A stretch of DNA of 64,000 bases from Gemmatimonadota bacterium (GTDB lineage: Bacteria; Gemmatimonadota; Gemmatimonadetes; Gemmatimonadales; Gemmatimonadaceae), in NCBI GenBank assembly GCA_028287235.1, contig JAQBQB010000002.1, forward strand, positions 62,001-126,000, in the 5' to 3' direction. Made by a program: the position numbers and the translations under genes. Under the pieces are notes generated by a model. The model was not told where the DNA came from. It searched no databases and was given only the letters and a program-made list of their open reading frames with translations. Positions 48,523-58,489 of the stretch are shown here, one piece after another. Within the stretch, counting starts at the first letter, position 1, and each line of letters starts with the position of its first letter.

Positions 48523-49233
48523 ATGACAACTTTCATCGGCACCGCCCAACGGACTACGTACACGGTCGACATGCCTGCCGACGTGCCCCCCGACGCCATC
48601 GAGCGACAACAAACGTTGAGGCAGTATCTCGTCGCCCGGGAAAAGGTTCGGTTCTTCGAGGAATACGTGGCGGCGCAGCAGCAGCAGCACTTCGACGACT
48701 TCGTCGTCAATGTCATGGCCCGACGGATGTATTCCACGTCGTGCGATCTGGCGTCGAGCGCGGCCGCGGAGATCACCGCCGCCTGCAGCGCATTTCAGAT
48801 GGAGTCGAATTCCATGCGGCACACGGTGACGACGCTCGGCGCCGTGCGCCAACGCCTGGACGAGCAGATCGCCGCGCACGTCGGCGTCTGCGGGTCGGCG
48901 GCCGCGTGCATCCTCGACGACCACATGGCGCAGGTACGCTCCGAGCTCACGGTGACGCAAACCAAACGCGACGACACGCAATCCTGGCTCGATACACTCC
49001 AGGCGTTGCGGGTGAAGGCGGAAACGCCGCCGGAAACGAATGGGCATCAGTGGGCGACCAGCAGCGCGGGGTTCGGCAGGAGCTACTCCCAGCCTCACGT
49101 CGCGAGCCGGACGAACACCGACCCCGTGCTCGTGAAGGAGACCATCACCGAGGAATTCCGCGACCTCCGCGCTACGACGAAGGAACCGGCGAATCCACTC
49201 GACGCCGACATACCGAAGCCCAAGAAACGCTGA
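48523..49233 (+). CDS. hypothetical helical protein before the FLGE-repeat operon
   Basis: The 236-residue product is soluble and mainly helical; residues 25-140 look like a helical bundle or coiled coil (RQQTLRQYLVAREKVRFFEE, YVAAQQQQHFDDFVV, then TVTQTKRDDTQSWLDTLQAL). The tail is polar and ends PKPKKR. Four Cys residues lie in the bundle. It has its own terminator 31 bases downstream and so is a separate transcript from the operon behind it, though it may belong to the same function. No family recognised. Confidence 0.6.
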   Translation: MTTFIGTAQRTTYTVDMPADVPPDAIERQQTLRQYLVAREKVRFFEEYVAAQQQQHFDDFVVNVMARRMYSTSCDLASSAAAEITAACSAFQMESNSMRHTVTTLGAVRQRLDEQIAAHVGVCGSAAACILDDHMAQVRSELTVTQTKRDDTQSWLDTLQALRVKAETPPETNGHQWATSSAGFGRSYSQPHVASRTNTDPVLVKETITEEFRDLRATTKEPANPLDADIPKPKKR

Positions 49234-49263: not shown

Positions 49264-49298
49264 ACGGCCGGGATCGAATTTCGATCCCGGCCGTTTTT
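49264..49298 (+). terminator. strong Rho-independent terminator
   Basis: ACGGCCGGGATCG and CGATCCCGGCCGT (13 bp, perfect) flank AATTT, followed by TTTTC. It isolates the 48523 gene from the sigma-54 promoter of the next operon. Confidence 0.92.
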
Positions 49299-49407
49299 CT
49301 TGCGTGCTCACGCGTCCACGGCGAACCCCGCTTCGCACTCCGCCGGGCCGGCCACGCGATTACGAAGTGTCCTTCGCGTGCCCTCGTTGAATATCAACGA
49401 CTTAGCG

Positions 49408-49423
49408 TGGCACCACCGCTGCG
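49408..49423 (+). promoter_or_regulatory. sigma-54 (-24/-12) promoter of the FLGE-repeat operon
   Basis: TGGCACCACCGCTGCG matches TGGCACG-N4-TTGCW except at two positions, with GG (49409-49410) and GC (49421-49422) exactly ten bases apart. Transcription would start near 49434, 43 bases before the ATG at 49477. An inverted repeat CGTTGA-ATA-TCAACG lies at 49385-49399. A sigma-54 activator is encoded at 57092-58489. Confidence 0.65.
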
Positions 49424-49476
49424 TTCACCATGTCTTGTTCGCTACCCGCCTTCTTCAACTCGTACGGGAGGTAACA

Positions 49477-50514
49477 ATGCACGACGTGGACCGCACGCTC
49501 CAAGAGACCGAATCCGAATTCGGCGAGACCGAGATGCACGAGTCGGCCGGAGAGGGAGAAGAGTTCCTGGGCGATATCGTCGGCGGCCTGTTCGGCGGCG
49601 AGTTGGAAGCGCAGGAACAAGGATTCCTGGGCGAAGAAGAAGTCTTCGAGCAGAACTTCCTCGGCGAGCAGGAATTCGAGCAGGGATTCCTGGGCGAGAG
49701 TGAAGCCGTGTTCGACGAAGTGACGGAGATGGAGCTGGCCGCCGAACTGCTCGGCGCGCAGAACGAGGAGGAGCTGGAACAGTTCATCGGCAACCTGTTG
49801 AAGAAGGCCGGCAAGTTCGCCGGCAACATCGCACGCGGCCCGATCGGCCAGGCCCTCGGCCCGATTCTCAAGAAGGCAGCGAGGGTCGCACTCCCTGCCG
49901 CCGGCGCGGCGCTGGGAAATCTCGTGCTTCCGGGAGTGGGCGGTGCCCTTGGCGGCAAGCTCGCCTCGGCGGCCGGTTCGATGTTCGGCTTGGAGTTCGA
50001 GGGACTGAGCCCGCAGGATCGGGAGTTCGAGGCAGCCAAGCGCGTCGTGCGGTTCGGCGGCGCAGCGGCCAAGCGGCTCGCGCGCACACCCACGTCCGTT
50101 CCGCCGCGTCAGGCGATCAAGGCAGCGACCATCGCCGCCGCGCGGAGACACATCCCGGGACTGCTCCGTCCGAAGATCGTCAACAACATCACCAACGTGC
50201 TGCGGCAGGCGCAGGTGCAGGCAGCGCGCGCGCGCGCCGCCGGCGGCCGGCCGATCAATCGGACGAGAGGCGGCACGTACGGCGTCGGCGCGAGCTACGG
50301 CGTCGGTCCAACGTACGTGGGCTTGCCGACCTATGGCGGCGCTCCTACCTACGCTGGCCCCGCGTTCGGCGCCGGCTATGTCACGCCGAGCATCGACACC
50401 CCGAGCTACATCACCGGCTCGACGAACGGCGGCAGCTATTACGCACCCACCGGCAGTACGCGCACGGGCAAGTGGTACCGGCGCGGCCACAAGATCGTTC
50501 TCGTCGGCGTCTGA
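49477..50514 (+). CDS. FLGE-repeat protein with hydrophobic core and Gly/Tyr-rich tail, unknown
   Basis: The 345-residue product has three parts. Residues 1-100 are strongly acidic with repeats EQGFLGEEE (47-55), EQNFLGEQE (58-66), EQGFLGESE (68-76) and a related EEFLGD (29-33). Residues 103-185 are Gly/Ala-rich and amphipathic (KKAGKFAGNIARGPIGQALG, ALPAAGAALGNLVLPGVGGA) followed by a basic helical stretch. Residues 260-325 are Gly/Tyr/Thr-rich (GTYGVGASYGVGPTYVGLPT). There is no signal peptide. Acidic-repeat proteins of this layout occur in other phyla without known function. GGGAGG precedes the ATG. It may be a structural or secreted polypeptide handled by the enzymes downstream. Confidence 0.75.
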   Translation: MHDVDRTLQETESEFGETEMHESAGEGEEFLGDIVGGLFGGELEAQEQGFLGEEEVFEQNFLGEQEFEQGFLGESEAVFDEVTEMELAAELLGAQNEEELEQFIGNLLKKAGKFAGNIARGPIGQALGPILKKAARVALPAAGAALGNLVLPGVGGALGGKLASAAGSMFGLEFEGLSPQDREFEAAKRVVRFGGAAAKRLARTPTSVPPRQAIKAATIAAARRHIPGLLRPKIVNNITNVLRQAQVQAARARAAGGRPINRTRGGTYGVGASYGVGPTYVGLPTYGGAPTYAGPAFGAGYVTPSIDTPSYITGSTNGGSYYAPTGSTRTGKWYRRGHKIVLVGV

Positions 50515-50524
50515 GGCCGGAACC

Positions 50525-51871
50525 GTGTACAACGCATCTCCGGCCGCGCGGTTTCTCGAGCAGGAAGCTCGAGGACTCGTGACTCGCCTCGCCCGCGTGA
50601 AGCCCTTCGCTTTGCTCACTCCTTCAGTGCCGGCGGCGGCGGTGACCGTAGCCGCCCAGTCGGCGATCGAGAGCTATCTGGCGACGGGCCGGCAAGAGCT
50701 TCGCGCGCGCGTGGGGAGCTTTCTTCGATGGATCCGCAGTCCGGAGGGACAGCACGCGAGCGCCGCGGAGCTACAACGGCGGTTCACGTTCCTGCGTCTG
50801 CGGTTCAACGTGGTGCTGTCGCAGTTCGACATCTTCGCGGAGGTACTCACGCAGCGGAGTGAGCATGAAACAGGTGTGCTCGTCGGCGGTCTCGACGTGG
50901 TGGCCGCCGAAGCGCTGGAGGTACCCGGGCTCACCGGAGCGCCTCCAGTCATCTGCTACCTCGTCCGCGATCCCGGCGCCGCCATCCGGCGCGCGCGCAC
51001 GCGTCTGCCCGGCGGAGGATCGAACCCCGTCGCGGTGATTCGCGTGCCGCGCGAACGCATGATCGGCAGCGGCATCGCGTCGTCGCTGGTGCACGAGGTG
51101 GGACACCAAGGTGCCGCGCTCCTCGGATTGGTGGAGTCGCTGCGACCGGTGTTGCAAGCGAGACAGCGCACCGCGGGCGATAGCGCCGTCGCTTGGCAGC
51201 TGTGGGAACGTTGGATCTCCGAGATCGTCGCCGATCTCTGGTCGGCGGCCAAGGTTGGCGTGGCGGCTCCGCTCGGGTTGATCGGCGTCGTGAGTCTGCC
51301 ACGGGCGTTCGTCTTTCGGATCAACGCGGAGGATCCGCACCCGGCACCGTGGATCCGCGTGAAGATCAGTTGCGCGATGGGCAACGCCATGTACCCCCAT
51401 CCGCAGTGGGATCGGCTGGCGGCACTCTGGGGCCAGCTCTATCCGCTGTCCGACGCGGGGGACGTGCAGCAGCCGCTCTTCAAGCTGCTCGAGACCACCA
51501 TTCCCGAGCTCGTGCAGATCATGCTCGCCCACCGGCCCACCTCGCTCGGCGGTCGTTCGCTGCGCGACGCGCTCCGGGCGGGAGACCGGCAGCCGCAGCA
51601 ACTCGCGGCGCTGTTTCGCAGTTGGAACCGCGAGCCGATGAAGATGCGCGAGCACCCGCCCACGCTCGTCTTCGCGGCGATCGGCCAAGCGCGCGCGGAT
51701 GGAATTCTCCAAGCCGAGGAGGAGAGCCGTCTGCTCGCTTACCTACTCACATACTGGGCGCTGCGCAGCACACTCGACATCGCCGAGGTGTGCGCGACCA
51801 CGCAACCGCGCATGCGGGCGCGTTGGAAGAGTGCCGAGCTACCGTCCGCGGCGGTCCTCGCCGCCGTCTGA
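50525..51871 (+). CDS. HEXXH zinc-peptidase-like protein of the FLGE operon
   Basis: GTG 50525 lies ten bases after the previous stop and gives 448 residues. The only known motif is HEVGH (H190, E191, H194) followed by E233-x3-D237 (EIVAD), the metal site of a gluzincin protease. Flanks are helical (RRFTFLRLRFNVVLSQFDIF; WERWISEIVADLWSAAKVGV). No signal peptide. A protease maturing the FLGE-repeat protein is an attractive inference; an inactive structural role cannot be excluded. The next gene follows by 10 bases with AGGAGG. Confidence 0.7.
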   Translation: MYNASPAARFLEQEARGLVTRLARVKPFALLTPSVPAAAVTVAAQSAIESYLATGRQELRARVGSFLRWIRSPEGQHASAAELQRRFTFLRLRFNVVLSQFDIFAEVLTQRSEHETGVLVGGLDVVAAEALEVPGLTGAPPVICYLVRDPGAAIRRARTRLPGGGSNPVAVIRVPRERMIGSGIASSLVHEVGHQGAALLGLVESLRPVLQARQRTAGDSAVAWQLWERWISEIVADLWSAAKVGVAAPLGLIGVVSLPRAFVFRINAEDPHPAPWIRVKISCAMGNAMYPHPQWDRLAALWGQLYPLSDAGDVQQPLFKLLETTIPELVQIMLAHRPTSLGGRSLRDALRAGDRQPQQLAALFRSWNREPMKMREHPPTLVFAAIGQARADGILQAEEESRLLAYLLTYWALRSTLDIAEVCATTQPRMRARWKSAELPSAAVLAAV

Positions 51872-51881
51872 GGAGGAACGA

Positions 51882-53696
51882 ATGACTGACAAACTGCCCG
51901 ACATCACACACGTTGCGCTGGAGCGCACCGACTTTCCCTACACGGCCGACCGGCTGTTGTGGGAAGTCATCAAGGACCGCACGGAGGCGCTCTCGTTTCG
52001 ACGGTATTCGGACTTCATCGACCGTGTGATGAGCGACGCCGCGCCCACGGGCCACTCCGCGAGCGCAGTGGAATCCGCGTATTCGAAGGACCCGCTGGTC
52101 AAGAGCGCGCAGGCAACGCTGCGCGATCCACGGAGCAGCGCCGACGCACGCGCTGCCGCGGAAACGTTTCTGTCGTCCAAGCTCGACCAGGCCGCGGCGG
52201 TCGAAGATCCGGTGGTCGACGAGGCGACGGGCATCGACGCGCGACCGGCCAAGGGCCGGAAGACCGCCGCCAAGACGGTCGCCAGTACGTTCACCGCCCC
52301 GTTCTCGTCGAGCTCCACCGTCCAAGCGCGCGAGCTTCCGGCTGAGATCACGGACCTTCGGAAAAAGATCGCCACGTTCGGAGTCTCGAACGGCGATGCC
52401 TACCAACTGCTCAAGGCCGCGACGGATTTCTTCGTCATGTCCGAAGCGGGCCGTATGGAGGATGTGGGATTCATCGACCCGCCGAGCACGTATCTGTCGA
52501 TGGACTACGTGCAGGCGTTCCGCGGCGAATACCTGACCGATCTGATGACGGAGGCGAACTCGCCGTACGTGCTCCCGTACCTCAACATCATTCGGCGCCG
52601 GCTCGGCGAGTTGCCGTACAAGAAGAACTTGCAGCTCGGCGTGCGTCCCGATTCGTACGGAATCCTGCGCTCGCGGCTCATGAGCCCCGTGCTCATGGAA
52701 TTGATCTGGAACTACTGGATCGAGCAAGGAATGATGGTGCAGACCATGAACCTGATCTCGCTGCGCTTCCAGAACGTGCGCCGCGGAAACGGGCTCGATC
52801 CGCTCGGCAACTTCGAGCTCGATCCGCTGCGCCCGCTGAGCAACCTGCTGTGGGGCTACGTGCAGGACGAGCTCAACCGGCTGGGCGTGAACAGACGCTC
52901 ATATGAATATGCTCATGGCCTGGGCTTGCAGCTCGTCGGCAAGGCCGTGCCGGAGATGCACCCGGCCGATGTCCGCTCGCAGTTTCTCCCCGCTTTCCAC
53001 GATCTGCTGCGGTTGGCCTGGGTGTTCTTCCGGGAGGACGACGACAAGACGATCGTCGCCGACGCCTTCCCGATGTTGAACGCGCTGCGCGAGCTCCACT
53101 TCGTGATCGCCGAGGGCGCTCACAACCAGTTCGTCGACCTGACGATGCGCGCGCGATCGGAGATGTTGATGCAGCAGTGGATTCTCGCACGTCCGGAGAT
53201 GAAGGACTTCCTGCGCGGGCGCACGATGGTGCCGTACCCCGAGGAATGGATGGACCGGGTGGACGCCATGAAGTCGCTGCAGCAGTGGCACGACGCCTCG
53301 GTCATCAACTACAACGATCTCGCGGTGTACGGGGAAAAGATCCTGCTCGCCGTGCGCTACGGGAACTGGAGCACCACGACCGACCAGAACCAGGCGGCCA
53401 ACTGGGCCCGCTCGTTCCGTCCGGAGATCCAACGGTACACGCACGCGCTCAAGATCGTGTCGTCCCTCGACCTGTCGGTAGGCGACGTCGTCGAGGTCCG
53501 CACGGAGTCCGAACGCCTGCAACAGGGAATCGTGTCGCGCACGGCACGTCCGGGCGGAACGTTCAATCAACCGCAGCAACCCGTTCCCCGGCCGGCGGTC
53601 GCGCGGCAGGCGACGGCGCACGTATTGAAGGGGGCAACACCAGCAGGCGCGTCGGCGAACCTGCCATCGCAGGTCATGGGTAAGCCGCGGGTGTGA
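51882..53696 (+). CDS. 604-residue protein of the FLGE operon, unknown
   Basis: The product is soluble and mostly helical. Features: N-terminal DITHVALERTDFPYTADRLL, a low-complexity Ala/Ser/Thr linker at about 100-150, a large helical part (FFVMSEAGRMEDVGFIDPPS, LMSPVLMELIWNYWIEQGMM, LRPLSNLLWGYVQDELNRLG) and a Pro/Gln/Ala-rich tail. AGGAGG is perfectly placed before ATG 51882. The next gene overlaps by four bases. No family recognised; the size and helical content would suit a scaffold or carrier. Confidence 0.7.
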   Translation: MTDKLPDITHVALERTDFPYTADRLLWEVIKDRTEALSFRRYSDFIDRVMSDAAPTGHSASAVESAYSKDPLVKSAQATLRDPRSSADARAAAETFLSSKLDQAAAVEDPVVDEATGIDARPAKGRKTAAKTVASTFTAPFSSSSTVQARELPAEITDLRKKIATFGVSNGDAYQLLKAATDFFVMSEAGRMEDVGFIDPPSTYLSMDYVQAFRGEYLTDLMTEANSPYVLPYLNIIRRRLGELPYKKNLQLGVRPDSYGILRSRLMSPVLMELIWNYWIEQGMMVQTMNLISLRFQNVRRGNGLDPLGNFELDPLRPLSNLLWGYVQDELNRLGVNRRSYEYAHGLGLQLVGKAVPEMHPADVRSQFLPAFHDLLRLAWVFFREDDDKTIVADAFPMLNALRELHFVIAEGAHNQFVDLTMRARSEMLMQQWILARPEMKDFLRGRTMVPYPEEWMDRVDAMKSLQQWHDASVINYNDLAVYGEKILLAVRYGNWSTTTDQNQAANWARSFRPEIQRYTHALKIVSSLDLSVGDVVEVRTESERLQQGIVSRTARPGGTFNQPQQPVPRPAVARQATAHVLKGATPAGASANLPSQVMGKPRV

Positions 53697-54805
53697 CGGT
53701 GGGCGGCCTGGACTTCACGTCGGCGTTGTACCTGGGGCTGAGCCATCCGAGCCACGCCCTGCCGGCGTGGAGCTCGCTCACCACCGGAGCGCCGGCGGTG
53801 ATTCGGGAGCCGCACGTTGGGCTCTCGGTCGCCGCCGGCGTCGCCGCGCTCGTTGGCGCCGAGGCCGGCGTCGTCGGCACGTCGACGCTGCATCTGTCGC
53901 TCGATCTGTTTCAGTTGCTCGCCGCGCGCGGGGGACGCGTGTACGCCGACGCCTGCCTGTACGATGTCGCCGCGTGGGGACTCGAACACGCCGCTCTGCG
54001 CGGAGCGCGCGTGCGGCGGTTCGCCGCGCACTCCCCGGACGCACTCAGGCGGCAACTCGAGCGCGACGCGCCGTTCGTGCGCCCACCGATCGTCGTCACC
54101 GACGGACTCTGCCCGGCATGCGAACGCGTCGCGCCGCTCGCGGAGTACTTAAAGCACACCCGCGCGGTTGGCGGAATGCTGGTGGTGGACGACACACAAG
54201 GACTCGGCATACTTGGAGCGCGCTCAGATCGACGACATCCCTATGGCGTCGGTGGAGGCGGAACGATGCGGCAATCGGGAATCGCCGGAGTCGACGTCGT
54301 CATCATGGCGTCGCTCGCGAAGGGCTTCGGCGCGCCGGTAGCCGTACTCGCCGGCTCAGCGAATCTCATACGCCGTTTCCGACGCGACGCCGCGACACGC
54401 GTACACTGCAGTCCGCCGTCCATCCCCACGCTCCTGGCCGCGCAACGAGCGCTGAACATCAACGCGCGATACGGCGACACAATTCGACAGCGCCTTGCAA
54501 CGAACGTTTCTCGGTTCCTGGCGCGGACGGAACCGGACGACTTCGTCGACGGTCGGTGGCACTTCCCCGTGCAATCGATTTCGATTCCGGCGCACCTCGA
54601 CGCGCGGCTCGTGCATCGACAGCTCGCCGCGCAGGGCGTCCAAACAGTGCTCACGCGCCGGCGCGGCGACTCCGCGGCGCTCACCTTTCTCGTCACCGCG
54701 GCCCACCGCGCGGACGGCGTCGGTCGTGCGGCATCGCTCGCGCTCCGCCTGCTCGCGACCGACGCCGTTGCCGTGTCCGAACCGGGATTCGCTAGTGCAG
54801 TCTGA
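53693..54805 (+). CDS. alpha-oxoamine synthase-like PLP enzyme (AONS/KBL family)
   Basis: The 370-residue product is a fold-type I PLP enzyme: Schiff-base Lys210 in IMASLAKGFGAPVAVLAG, the PLP-binding MLVVDDTQGLGILG (Asp166/167), and the N-terminal HVGLSVAAGVAALVG. 8-Amino-7-oxononanoate synthase and glycine C-acetyltransferase are the nearest types; they condense an amino acid with an acyl-CoA. No biotin genes are near, so another substrate is likely. GTG 53693 overlaps the previous stop (GTGA), and the next gene overlaps by 11 bases. Confidence 0.8.
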   Translation: MTVGGLDFTSALYLGLSHPSHALPAWSSLTTGAPAVIREPHVGLSVAAGVAALVGAEAGVVGTSTLHLSLDLFQLLAARGGRVYADACLYDVAAWGLEHAALRGARVRRFAAHSPDALRRQLERDAPFVRPPIVVTDGLCPACERVAPLAEYLKHTRAVGGMLVVDDTQGLGILGARSDRRHPYGVGGGGTMRQSGIAGVDVVIMASLAKGFGAPVAVLAGSANLIRRFRRDAATRVHCSPPSIPTLLAAQRALNINARYGDTIRQRLATNVSRFLARTEPDDFVDGRWHFPVQSISIPAHLDARLVHRQLAAQGVQTVLTRRRGDSAALTFLVTAAHRADGVGRAASLALRLLATDAVAVSEPGFASAV

Positions 54806-56207
54806 CGCCCCGTCCGTTCGCGCGGCACTCGAGTATGCGCGCGCCAACGCCGCGCGCTTCACGACGCGGCTCGCCGAGCTCGTTCGCTTTGCTTCGGTGA
54901 GCGGAGACGCCTCGCGGCGCGACGACGTCCGCCTCTGCGCGGAATGGCTGGTGCGTACGCTACGAACGATCGGGCTGCCGCACGCGCGGCTGATCGAAAC
55001 GAGTGGAGCCCCGCTCGTGTTCGCGAGTCTGCGGCGGTCGGCGCCGAACGGTCGCGCCACGATTCTCGTCTACGGCCACTACGACGTTCAGCCTCCGGGC
55101 CCGAGTGCCGAGTGGCACTCGCCGCCCTTCACACCGACGATCCGCGACGGCGCGGTGGTCGGCCGGGGCGCGAGCGACGACAAAGGCCAACTCCTCGCGC
55201 ACGTCAACGCGATCGAATCGTGGATTCACACCGCGGGCGAGCTCCCGGTGAACGTCGTGTGTCTCTTCGAGGGAGAGGAGGAGATCGGGAGTCCCGCCCT
55301 GCGCCGATTTCTGCGCACACATGGGCCGCGGCTAGGCGTGCAGGCGGCGATCATCTCCGACACACGGATGCGCGCTGTTGACCGACCCGCCATCACCTAT
55401 GCGCTGCGCGGAAAGATGCGTATCGAGCTCGTGGTGCTGCGCCGCGGGCGCGAGGTCCACGCCGGCGAGTTCGCCGGAGCGGTCTTCGACCCGGCGCGCG
55501 CGCTGGCCAGCATCGTGGCGTCGTTGCACGAGCCGGGCGGTCGCATTGCCGTCGACGGGTTTCATGACAGCATACGCGTTGCCTCAGCCGCCGAACGGAC
55601 TTACATGAAACGCGTTGGGCCGAGCGACGCGGAGATTCTGGGTTCTGGCGGACTCGAGCCGGCACCGGAGACGTGCGAACGGTCCCTCTACGAGCGCACG
55701 ACGCTCGATCCGGCGATCAGCGTGACGGAACTGCAGGCCGGCGACGCCGGCGAGCACGGGAAAAGCGCGATTCCCGCGCGGACGAGCGCGATGCTCGATC
55801 TGCGTCTCGTTGCGGGCCAGGACCCTCGGCGTATCGCACAACTCGTTCGCACGCATGCGCGCCGCTTCGCACCCCCCGGCGCGCACGTCGCCCTCCGCAT
55901 TCGCTCCGCGTCGCCCGCGCTCGTCCTCGATCCACGGAACGCCGCACTGCGCGCCGGTGCGCGTGCCGCCGAAGCAACGTTCGGCAGGCCCGTCGTCTTC
56001 CTGCGGTCGGGCGGAACGATTCCCGTCGTCGACACGCTCGCGTCGCTGGGCATTCCAACGGTGCTCCTTGGGTTCGCGCTCGCCGACGACGGCATGCATG
56101 CCCCAAATGAACGGTTCGGCGTGCGGCGCTTTGCGCAGGCCACCGAATGCGCGATTCGCTTTCTCGCCGAAGCCGGGCGAACACTCTCTCCGCGGCCACT
56201 CCAATGA
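54795..56207 (+). CDS. M20 family metallopeptidase (dipeptidase-like)
   Basis: The 470-residue product has the M20 dizinc site: ILVYGHYDVQPPGPSAEWHS, GRGASDDKGQLLAHVNAIES, CLFEGEEEIGSPALRRFLRT, and a C-terminal RSGGTIPVVDTL and MHAPNERFGV. These match dipeptidases of the PepV/CNDP group, which cleave small peptides in the cytoplasm. GTG 54795 gives an 11-base overlap with the PLP gene; the next gene overlaps by four bases. It is the second peptidase of the cluster. Confidence 0.88.
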   Translation: MQSDAPSVRAALEYARANAARFTTRLAELVRFASVSGDASRRDDVRLCAEWLVRTLRTIGLPHARLIETSGAPLVFASLRRSAPNGRATILVYGHYDVQPPGPSAEWHSPPFTPTIRDGAVVGRGASDDKGQLLAHVNAIESWIHTAGELPVNVVCLFEGEEEIGSPALRRFLRTHGPRLGVQAAIISDTRMRAVDRPAITYALRGKMRIELVVLRRGREVHAGEFAGAVFDPARALASIVASLHEPGGRIAVDGFHDSIRVASAAERTYMKRVGPSDAEILGSGGLEPAPETCERSLYERTTLDPAISVTELQAGDAGEHGKSAIPARTSAMLDLRLVAGQDPRRIAQLVRTHARRFAPPGAHVALRIRSASPALVLDPRNAALRAGARAAEATFGRPVVFLRSGGTIPVVDTLASLGIPTVLLGFALADDGMHAPNERFGVRRFAQATECAIRFLAEAGRTLSPRPLQ

Positions 56208-57061
56208 TCATCGACTGCCACTGCCACGCCGGCCCCGGCGACGGACTCACCGCGCCCTGGGACACCACGGCGTCGCTCGACAAGTATCTCGCGCGCGCGT
56301 CGCGCGCCGGTATCGACCGCACGGTGCTGTTCGCCGCGTTCCATTCCGACTACGCGGTGGCCAACCACGAAGTGGCGCGCGTCGTCGGCGCGCGGCCCGA
56401 TCGCTTCTTCGGATTCTGCTTCGTCAACTCGGTCGCCGACCGCGGCCGCATACGGGCGCTCGTCCGCACGTCGGTGGAGCAGTACGGCTTCGTGGGCATC
56501 AAGGTGCACCGCTTTCACGGCGACATCACGCGCGAGGTGTGCGACGTGGCGCGCGACTTCGATCTGCCGGTGCTGTACGACGTGATGGGCAAGGTCTCGG
56601 TCGTGGAGATGCTCGCCACGGCATTTCCCGACGTCCGCTTCATCATCCCACACCTCGGCAGCTTCGTCGACGATTGGCGCGCGAATCTCGGGCTGATCGA
56701 TCATCTCGTGCGTCATCCCAACGTGCACACCGACAGCTCCGCCGTGCAGCGCTTCGACTTCCTCGAGCAGGCCGTGCAGCGCGCGGGGGCGCACAAACTG
56801 CTCTTCGGCTCGGACGGACCGTGGATTCACCCCGGGGTGGAGCTCGCGAAAATTCGCGAGCTGCGGCTCGCGCCGGCCGACGAGGCACTCGTGCTGTCGG
56901 GAAACCTGCTGCGGCTCATCGGCGAGAGAGGACGGGCGCGTGTGAGAAAACCGGTCGCCGCTGCTCCCCACCTCCCGGTGATTCCCAGGCCGAGAGTTAC
57001 CGCCATTCCTCCCCGGCCGGTGACTCCGTGGATGCGCACGCAGTCGACGCAGTTGCTTTGA
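56204..57061 (+). CDS. amidohydrolase-2 (TIM-barrel) family protein
   Basis: The 285-residue product has the metal-binding HxH (MIIDCHCHAGPGDG), a later GIKVHRFHGDITREV, FIIPHLGSFVDDW (His ligand) and FGSDGPWIHPG (Asp ligand), typical of the amidohydrolase-2/ACMSD-like group that hydrolyses or decarboxylates cyclic and carboxylic substrates. A 45-residue Pro/Arg-rich tail follows the barrel. ATG 56204 overlaps the M20 stop (ATGA). Last gene of the operon; the sigma-54 activator gene converges from 31 bases away. Confidence 0.82.
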   Translation: MIIDCHCHAGPGDGLTAPWDTTASLDKYLARASRAGIDRTVLFAAFHSDYAVANHEVARVVGARPDRFFGFCFVNSVADRGRIRALVRTSVEQYGFVGIKVHRFHGDITREVCDVARDFDLPVLYDVMGKVSVVEMLATAFPDVRFIIPHLGSFVDDWRANLGLIDHLVRHPNVHTDSSAVQRFDFLEQAVQRAGAHKLLFGSDGPWIHPGVELAKIRELRLAPADEALVLSGNLLRLIGERGRARVRKPVAAAPHLPVIPRPRVTAIPPRPVTPWMRTQSTQLL

Positions 57062-57091
57062 TCGGTTCGACCGCTGAGATCTGTTGCATCG

Positions 57092-58489
57092 TTAGTTCGC
57101 GATCGGCGGCAACGGACCCGTCGGCGTCGAGTGCACCTGCCGCTTCGCGGCCCGGCGCATCTGGAGCGCGCGGTCGGTGACGTGCAGCCGCCGCGCGGCG
57201 TTCTGGAGGTTCCCCTCGATGTCCACGGCGAGACGGATTGCCGTCTCGGTGGCTGCCTGCCCGATCTCGCGCAGAGAAACGCCCTGTGCCACCGCGCGCC
57301 GAATGGCGCCCTCGAACGGTATGTCCAGCCAGCTGGTGCTCAGATCCACGTCGGGACGGTCGTCTTCCGGGATGTCGCCCGCGGTGATCGGGCCAGGGCC
57401 GACGTGACGATGCATGATCCGCATCACCAGTTGGCGTAGCTCGCGCACGTTCCCCGGATACGCGCGCTCCACGAGATACCGTTCTACGATCCCTTCGATC
57501 TCCGGCGGCTCATGCAGCCGACGAATCGCCGACATGAAATGGCGCGCGAGGGGCAGCACGTCTTCCGAGCGGTCGCGAAGCGACGGGAGATGGATCGTAA
57601 TGCTCGCGATACGATAGTAGAGGTCGCCACGGAACTGCCCCTGCTCCACGGCGCCGAGGAGATCGCGATGTGTGGCGCTGACCAGACGGAAGTGGGTCTT
57701 CTGCCACATGTTGCTGCCGACGCGCTTGTACGTGCACTCCTGCACGGCGCGCAGCAATTCGGGTTGAAGCCGGAGCGGCAGGTCGCCGAGCTCGTCGAGG
57801 AACAGCGTGCCGCCGTTTGCCAGCGCGAATGCGCCGTCGCGCGCCGACACGGCACCGGTGAACGACCCGCGCTCGTGGCCGAAAAACTCGCTGCCCGACA
57901 GCTCGGGCGCGATCGCGCCGCAGTCGACGACGACCAGCGCTCCTTTCCCGTGCCCGGGATCGAGTGAATGGACGAGACGCGCGGCAAGCTCCTTCCCCGA
58001 GCCCGTGTCGCCCTGCAGCAAGATCGGAGCGTCCGTGAAGTGCGCCGCCTCGACGAGCTGCCGCATGACAGCGCGCCACGTGTTGCTTTCGCCGACCAGA
58101 TTGTCGCGCACGAGCGACGAGTCGACGATGGCATCGACCTCCACCCAGCGAGTGAGGCGCGCGGCCGCGGCGCGCGCCACTTCGGCCCGGCCGTCCATCG
58201 CCAGCACGTCCGAGGCGCCGTGCCGAAGCAACTGCCAGACGGTCTGCTGGGTCACCGCGCCGCCGGTCGCCACGGCGAGCACCCGCCGCGCGCCGCCGCG
58301 GCTCGCGTCGCGCACGAATTCGCCCAGGCGATCGCTCATCTCGTGGAAGAAGACGATGCCGGCGCCCTCGACTTCGCCCGGAGAGAGCGGCAATACTCCG
58401 ATGCCGGCGTGGGTGAGCGCGTCGAGAATCGAGCGCGTCCCTTCGACGCGCTCGCCGAACGTCTGCTGCCAAACGATCGTCTTGATCAT
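57092..58489 (-). CDS. sigma-54-dependent transcriptional activator
   Basis: The 465-residue product has an unusual N-terminal domain (1-135) that resembles a receiver without its phosphoacceptor pattern, then an AAA+ domain with Walker A GDTGSGKE (160-167), the sigma-54 contact loop GSFTGA (208-213, where GAFTGA is usual) and Walker B GGTLFLDE (226-233), and a C-terminal Fis-type helix-turn-helix (GNLQNAARRLHVTDRALQMR). It very likely drives the sigma-54 promoter at 49408, being the only such activator here and next to that operon. Confidence 0.9.
   Translation of the reverse strand: MIKTIVWQQTFGERVEGTRSILDALTHAGIGVLPLSPGEVEGAGIVFFHEMSDRLGEFVRDASRGGARRVLAVATGGAVTQQTVWQLLRHGASDVLAMDGRAEVARAAAARLTRWVEVDAIVDSSLVRDNLVGESNTWRAVMRQLVEAAHFTDAPILLQGDTGSGKELAARLVHSLDPGHGKGALVVVDCGAIAPELSGSEFFGHERGSFTGAVSARDGAFALANGGTLFLDELGDLPLRLQPELLRAVQECTYKRVGSNMWQKTHFRLVSATHRDLLGAVEQGQFRGDLYYRIASITIHLPSLRDRSEDVLPLARHFMSAIRRLHEPPEIEGIVERYLVERAYPGNVRELRQLVMRIMHRHVGPGPITAGDIPEDDRPDVDLSTSWLDIPFEGAIRRAVAQGVSLREIGQAATETAIRLAVDIEGNLQNAARRLHVTDRALQMRRAAKRQVHSTPTGPLPPIAN

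What the first reader, a model, noticed from the sequence alone, without database searches (positions are those of the whole stretch)
49408..58489. Sigma-54-controlled operon around an FLGE-repeat protein: candidate undescribed system
Six consecutive plus-strand genes (repeat protein, HEXXH protein, 604-residue unknown, alpha-oxoamine-synthase-like PLP enzyme, M20 dipeptidase, amidohydrolase) are joined by overlaps of 4-11 bases or gaps of about 10. They start behind a -24/-12 promoter, and a sigma-54 activator gene faces the last one. An unusual polypeptide combined with two peptidases, a C-C bond-forming PLP enzyme and an amidohydrolase suggests production, maturation or recycling of a peptide-derived product. 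Three of the six have no recognised family.
Basis: partly seen in the sequence, partly recalled or inferred. Interest (0 to 1): 0.75.

Follow-up and report, generated by a model that had tools for sequence, protein, structure and literature searches.

The report
Widespread undescribed sigma-54 effector-like gene system
This operon is one copy of an apparently undescribed multi-gene system found in the same gene order in at least ten bacterial phyla; elsewhere it carries interchangeable cell-wall-cutting, protein-cutting and DNA-cutting enzymes, which suggests a weapon or lysis device, although nobody has tested it.

Summary
In detail: six plus-strand genes (49477-57061), 10-base gaps or 4-11 base overlaps, behind the window's only exact -24/-12 site (49408), facing a sigma-54 activator. 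Genes 1-3 match no Pfam or NCBIfam family. A scan of one genome per species gave 268 relatives of the HEXXH protein. Of 63 retrieved loci with enough flank, 63 also have the acidic protein, 63 the '604' protein, 60 the PLP enzyme, 60 the amidohydrolase, 58 the convergent activator, but only 14 the M20 gene, in one fixed order across ten phyla. A sigma-54 site lies upstream in 68/80 loci (33/1600 random windows). Most loci carry variable genes between PLP and amidohydrolase: peptidoglycan-binding proteins joined to murein hydrolases, proteases or GIY-YIG/HNH nucleases, mostly without signal peptides, some fused to the gene-1 domain. The window's copy lacks this cargo. The gene-1 protein is an acidic N-part followed by a cationic, glycine-rich segment; FLGE repeats are a local elaboration. 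Best reading: a sigma-54-switched system that matures and deploys lytic/toxic proteins. System: near certain; function: about 0.4. Peptide-product biosynthesis remains a rival. No description found.

The parts
49264..49301 (+). intrinsic-terminator-like inverted repeat with T run, isolating the operon from the 236-aa gene upstream
   Evidence: sequence (ggccgggatcgaa/ttcgatcccggcc then ttttt)
49408..49422 (+). sigma-54 -24/-12 promoter element TGGCACCACCGCTGC
   Evidence: only exact match in the window; conserved in two sister genomes; same element upstream of the first REP gene in 68/80 loci against 33/1600 random windows
49477..50514 (+). g1, REP protein: MHDVDRT start, acidic N-part with FLGE-type repeats (first 105 aa net -32), cationic Gly/Ala-rich segment (next 66 aa net +8), C-terminal GKWYRRGHKIVLVGV
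   Evidence: relatives in 63/63 loci
50525..51871 (+). g2, HEXXH protein with gluzincin-type motif H190 E191 xx H194 ... E233 xxx D237
   Evidence: these residues invariant in 46 sequences incl. two at 24-26% identity; AF2 pLDDT 87.5
51882..53696 (+). g3, 604-residue mostly helical protein of unknown function; relatives often about 720 aa with an extra N-terminal region
   Evidence: 63/63 loci
53693..54805 (+). g4, divergent alpha-oxoamine-synthase-fold PLP enzyme (K210, D166 kept; position of the family His is Gln169)
   Evidence: 60/63 loci
54795..56207 (+). g5, M20 family dipeptidase-like peptidase (accessory, 14/63 loci)
   Evidence: PF01546 E 2.8e-26
56204..57061 (+). g6, PF04909 amidohydrolase with conserved D4/H6/H8, K100, H150, D204
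   Evidence: PF04909 E 2.3e-19; conservation; 60/63 loci
57092..58489 (-). convergent sigma-54 activator: N-terminal region of about 125 aa resembling a receiver domain, AAA+ (GSFTGA here, GAFTGA in 52 of 58 relatives), C-terminal DNA-binding region
   Evidence: PF00158 E 3.1e-53

Best explanation
The operon is one copy of a mobile, sigma-54-switched system. Shown: REP, gluzincin-like HEXXH protein, 604 protein, PLP enzyme, amidohydrolase and convergent activator are kept together in fixed order across phyla; REP proteins are an acidic N-part followed by a cationic glycine-zipper-like segment; elsewhere variable genes in the operon encode peptidoglycan-binding proteins with murein-hydrolase, protease or nuclease domains, some fused to REP. 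Inferred: on an unknown signal the activator turns on a burst of expression; the acidic part keeps the membrane-active REP segment silent; the HEXXH protein cuts or conditions REP, and cargo bearing REP or the short F..PF N-terminal motif, so that they act on or cross an envelope (of competitors, or of the cell itself at release); the 604 protein serves assembly; the PLP enzyme and amidohydrolase make or modify a small molecule or protein end needed for maturation or signalling. The window copy has no cargo, so here REP itself would be the active product.
For: Gene order and co-occurrence: 63/63 REP and 604, 60/63 PLP and amidohydrolase, 58/63 activator. Correlated divergence of HEXXH, 604, PLP and activator (r 0.69-0.88). 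In the plasmid collection the close PLP relatives lie only in system loci, the amidohydrolase in three system-type loci plus one 30% haloarchaeal match. Sigma-54 site in 68/80 loci against 33/1600 windows. Cargo: PG_binding_1 in 26/54, Amidase_2, Glucosaminidase, DUF2272, M74, M23, C1, trypsin, OmpA, GIY-YIG, HNH; GIY-YIG-like profile in 24 of 87 ORFs; REP domain fused in 12 cargo proteins of 300 aa or more. F..PF motif near the cargo start 24/86 against 6/712. Charge split in 71/78 REPs against 27/268 control proteins. 84 of 87 cargo ORFs and all 80 REPs show no hydrophobic N-terminal stretch. Patchy spread: three genomes of the genus, no true relative of g3 in the rest of 148 relatives; present on rhizobial and Paraburkholderia megaplasmids.
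Against: No functional data. No consistent immunity gene follows the cargo. REP copies occur only at this locus in 13 genomes, so there is no scattered effector repertoire. The window copy and its two sister genomes lack recognisable cargo. The nearly universal PLP enzyme and amidohydrolase have no obvious place in a toxin system. No export machine was identified. The 604 model is of low confidence and neither model has a clear fold match.
Confidence: 0.4

Rival explanations
1. Peptide-product pathway: REP is a precursor with an acidic leader; the HEXXH protein cuts it, the alpha-oxoamine-synthase-like enzyme forms a C-C bond on an amino acid or peptide end, M20 and the amidohydrolase trim it, giving a bioactive peptide or peptide-derived signal.
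For: PLP enzyme and amidohydrolase in 60/63 loci with catalytic residues conserved; acidic leader-like part and cationic core-like part of REP; C-terminal GRWxRRG motif in 78/80 adjacent REPs.
Against: REP is about 230 aa and conserved along its length, comes in several copies, and is fused inside 500-800 aa proteins with other domains; M20 is optional; PG-binding hydrolases and nucleases are unexplained; no Pfam or NCBIfam match to a known precursor or maturation family for genes 1-3.
Confidence: 0.25
2. Self-directed envelope or assembly system: REP proteins and the 604 protein build a wall-associated or intracellular protein assembly, and the PG-binding enzymes remodel the cell's own wall under a stress or nitrogen-type signal.
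For: Peptidoglycan-binding domain is the commonest cargo domain (26/54); lack of immunity genes; sigma-54 control; REP is a short repetitive module with conserved ends.
Against: Cargo also includes GIY-YIG and HNH nuclease-like domains and proteases; most proteins lack Sec-type N-termini; cargo type varies between lineages.
Confidence: 0.2
3. A chance neighbourhood of metabolic and unknown genes sharing a promoter.
For: M20 is variable; the amidohydrolase correlates less well with the rest (r 0.36-0.44).
Against: Fixed order in 63 loci across ten phyla, shared promoter element, correlated divergence.
Confidence: 0.02

Closest known systems
Polymorphic toxin systems (PMC3482391)
   Same: Shared short N-terminal region or PG-binding domain followed by variable lytic, protease or nuclease domains; horizontal spread
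   Different: No recognised trafficking domain, no consistent immunity gene, a single locus per genome, and a fixed metabolic core (PLP enzyme, amidohydrolase)
Alpha-oxoamine synthases (BioF, KBL, SPT, CqsA)
   Same: Fold and PLP lysine; best profile match BioF 1bs0/8dle (E 4e-32)
   Different: DDTQ replaces the DDAH/DEAH stretch, so the family His is Gln; about 40 N-terminal residues missing; all NCBIfam cut-offs missed
Gluzincin metallopeptidases
   Same: HExxH and downstream ExxxD invariant
   Different: No Pfam, NCBIfam or PDB sequence match and no clear fold match
CHAT/caspase-type conflict loci of rhizobial plasmids
   Same: Remote HEXXH relatives lie next to CHAT, patatin, PLD-like and C25 peptidase genes
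   Different: The one tested (L023) lacks REP, 604, PLP and amidohydrolase at the sensitivity used

Membership tests
sigma-54-dependent operon | -24/-12 element upstream | tested here: met
sigma-54-dependent operon | rpoN in the genome and an activator with the GxFTGA loop nearby | tested here: met
sigma-54-dependent operon | loss of transcription without rpoN | not testable with these tools
   needs RNA data
Polymorphic toxin system | shared N-terminal delivery module with variable C-terminal toxin domains | tested here: inconclusive
   F..PF motif 24/86 against 6/712 and PG-binding 26/54 ahead of varied domains; delivery role unproven
Polymorphic toxin system | adjacent immunity gene | tested here: not met
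   no consistent small gene after the cargo in the listed loci
Polymorphic toxin system | known secretion or trafficking domain | tested here: not met
   none among the Pfam families found in 54 cargo proteins, apart from a marginal PT-VENN match in one
Alpha-oxoamine synthase | homology over the family domain and PLP-binding Lys and Asp | tested here: met
   (K210, D166)
Alpha-oxoamine synthase | active-site His of the DEAH/DDAH stretch | tested here: not met
   Gln169 in at least 95% of 69 sequences
Gluzincin metallopeptidase | HExxH plus downstream Glu (ExxxD) | tested here: met
Gluzincin metallopeptidase | zincin fold by structure comparison | tested here: inconclusive
RiPP biosynthesis | short precursor peptide with a recognised maturation enzyme | tested here: inconclusive
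   no family match for genes 1-3; REP is about 230 aa
Known anti-phage defence system | PADLOC match of core genes | tested here: not met
   only the AAA+ activator matches, via RtcR-type models
eCIS/T6SS effector locus | structural genes of the injection device nearby | not tested
   flanks were not systematically scanned for these

The most novel reading that the evidence does not exclude
A new kind of delivery system for antagonistic proteins, in which a charge-masked, glycine-zipper REP polypeptide, matured by a dedicated metallopeptidase and a small-molecule or protein-end modification by the PLP enzyme, carries interchangeable lytic, protease and nuclease cargo across envelopes.
Probability: 0.22. 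Interest if true: 0.92.

Novelty: categorically new. Interest (0 to 1): 0.77.

Why it matters
A gene system kept in the same order in ten phyla, including ammonia and nitrite oxidisers, methanotrophs, rhizobia and myxobacteria, has three core families absent from Pfam and NCBIfam. If it deploys lytic or toxic proteins it would be a new weapon class; if it makes a peptide-derived product it would be a new biosynthetic route. Culturable hosts (Janthinobacterium, Massilia, Variovorax, Rhizobium, Myxococcus) make it directly testable.

Tried and rejected
G015 match to g3 and G030 match to g1 were chance: their loci contain housekeeping genes. The idea that g3 is related to the 396-aa gene of a divergent locus was rejected (hhalign probability 0.2). 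Phage origin: no match of g2 or g3 in 50,697 phage records. PDB sequence searches with g2 and g3 profiles gave nothing; the g1 profile hit only designed helical proteins, which I take as composition. Foldseek and VIA-align found no clear fold for either model; the g3 model is too poor to conclude from, and absence proves nothing. Literature searches found no description; the P. phymatum rpoN/NifA papers do not mention this locus under the locus-tag ranges I guessed.
Full report
CHECK. The activator (57092-58489, minus) has a clear sigma-54 AAA+ domain. TGGCAC-N5-YTGC matches exactly once in the 64-kb window, 69 bases before gene 1, and the genome has rpoN. A perfect inverted repeat with a T run (about 49264-49301) separates the operon from the gene upstream. 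Pfam and NCBIfam recognise nothing convincing in genes 1-3. The FLGE repeat is modest: three FLGE, one FLGD, one FIGN.

NEIGHBOURHOOD TEST. Among 148 related genomes the g3 set was found only in the window genome and two congeners, which keep order, promoter and activator; one of them lacks M20. The plasmid collection then gave relatives at 50-59% identity on Rhizobium, Ensifer and Paraburkholderia megaplasmids. A scan of one genome per species with the HEXXH alignment found 268 relatives; the best 80 loci were kept. Using tblastn so that gene calling does not matter, 63 loci had at least 9 kb of downstream and 1.5 kb of upstream flank: REP 63, HEXXH 63, 604 63, PLP 60, amidohydrolase 60, convergent activator 58, M20 14. 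The order is REP-(REP)-HEXXH-604-PLP-[variable]-(REP)-(M20)-amidohydrolase-<activator. By record titles the 80 loci fall in ten phyla, 63 of them Pseudomonadota. Pairwise distances of HEXXH, 604, PLP and activator rise together (r 0.69-0.88; the amidohydrolase 0.36-0.44). Conversely, close relatives of the PLP enzyme in the plasmid collection occur only in system loci, and those of the amidohydrolase only in system-type loci apart from one 30% match. These numbers describe the closest relatives, because loci were chosen by the HEXXH gene.

PROMOTER. The -24/-12 core matches at 9 or 10 of 10 positions in the 350 bases before the first REP gene in 68 of 80 loci, against 33 of 1600 random windows from the same loci; 52 of 58 activators show GAFTGA.

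PROTEINS. REP: the copy next to the HEXXH gene starts MHDIDRT-like (70 of 80 begin MH) and ends GRWxRRGxxIxLxG-like (78 of 80 have WxR near the end); median acidic fraction of the N-part 0.30. N-part median net charge -17, next 72 residues +6, glycine/alanine-rich with many GxxxG; 71 of 78 show the split against 27 of 268 control proteins. FLGE repeats are a local elaboration of the acidic part. HEXXH protein: H190, E191, H194, E233 and D237 are invariant in 46 sequences including two at 24-26% identity, a gluzincin-type signature; AF2 confidence is good (87.5) but no fold match is clear. 604: many invariant aromatic, acidic and His residues, mostly helical, low-confidence model. PLP: alpha-oxoamine-synthase fold (BioF E 4e-32), PLP Lys and Asp kept, the usual His replaced by Gln in almost all. 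Amidohydrolase: H6/H8, K100, H150, D204 conserved.

CARGO. Between the PLP gene and M20/amidohydrolase most loci carry extra genes (87 ORFs). Of 54 scanned, 26 have a peptidoglycan-binding domain; others have amidase, glucosaminidase, DUF2272, M74, M23, papain-type, trypsin-type, OmpA, GIY-YIG and HNH matches. A GIY-YIG-like domain recurs in 24 ORFs; single proteins score mostly under the Pfam cut-off, so the assignment rests on the shared pattern of conserved G-Y, Y-G, R, E and N positions. The REP domain is fused into 12 cargo proteins of 300 aa or more, and an F..PF motif in the first 30 residues occurs in 24 of 86 cargo proteins against 6 of 712 others. 84 of 87 cargo ORFs and all 80 REPs show no hydrophobic N-terminal stretch by a simple hydropathy measure that does flag likely secreted proteins of the window. 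The window copy and its two congeners have no such cargo.

WIDER FAMILY. Remote HEXXH relatives sit in other settings: a locus of the same bacterial family with a trypsin plus beta-lactamase-like protein (L018), a Paraburkholderia plasmid locus with two acidic proteins, M20 and amidohydrolase but no 604 or PLP (L024), and rhizobial plasmid loci with CHAT, patatin, phospholipase D-like and C25 peptidase genes. The last setting is of the kind seen in biological conflict loci; this is context, not proof.

READING. The presence of murein hydrolases, proteases and nuclease-like domains as interchangeable parts, joined to REP or to a shared short motif, under sigma-54 control and spread horizontally, fits best with a system that matures and deploys lytic or toxic proteins (about 0.4). 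Shown: conservation, order, promoter, domain content, charge pattern. Inferred: masking of a membrane-active segment by the acidic part, cleavage by the HEXXH protein, export, target, and the small-molecule role of the PLP enzyme and amidohydrolase. Against it stand the missing immunity genes, the single locus per genome, and the unexplained metabolic core, which keep peptide-product biosynthesis (0.25) and self-directed envelope or assembly function (0.2) alive.

NOVELTY. Genes 1-3 are named in neither Pfam, NCBIfam nor PADLOC, PHROGs gave only weak tail-tape and unknown matches for REP, and the papers searched do not describe the arrangement. The library lacks most subscription papers, so an unseen description is possible. 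It fails the immunity and trafficking tests for polymorphic toxin systems, so I do not file it there, although it may work like one.

Noticed in passing
L007:14712-18999: In sister genome G003, beyond the activator, lie a LuxR-type regulator, a 125-aa gene and a 464-aa protein related (41%) to the gene after the divergent HEXXH protein in L018.
   Followed up: partly
L024:9364-18820: Second subtype on a Paraburkholderia plasmid: acidic GELHELGELHE and EWEGE repeat proteins, divergent HEXXH protein, 652-aa and 388-aa unknowns, M20, amidohydrolase, next to an NTPase/WD40-type protein.
   Followed up: partly
L023:7902-24816 and L137:6794-17963: Divergent HEXXH relatives on rhizobial plasmids amid CHAT, patatin, phospholipase D-like, C25 peptidase, M4 and large ATP-binding protein genes.
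   Followed up: no
L018:12078-14681: 867-aa acidic protein combining a trypsin-like and a beta-lactamase-like domain near the divergent HEXXH gene.
   Followed up: no
window 48523-49233: 236-aa unknown upstream of the terminator, with a weak relative (34% over 99 aa) at the same place in G005 only.
   Followed up: partly
L038, L040-L042 and other loci with a third REP: The REP copy after the PLP gene often starts with a CxCxxC cysteine cluster (MHxLxCxCxxCR), absent from the copy next to the HEXXH gene.
   Followed up: no
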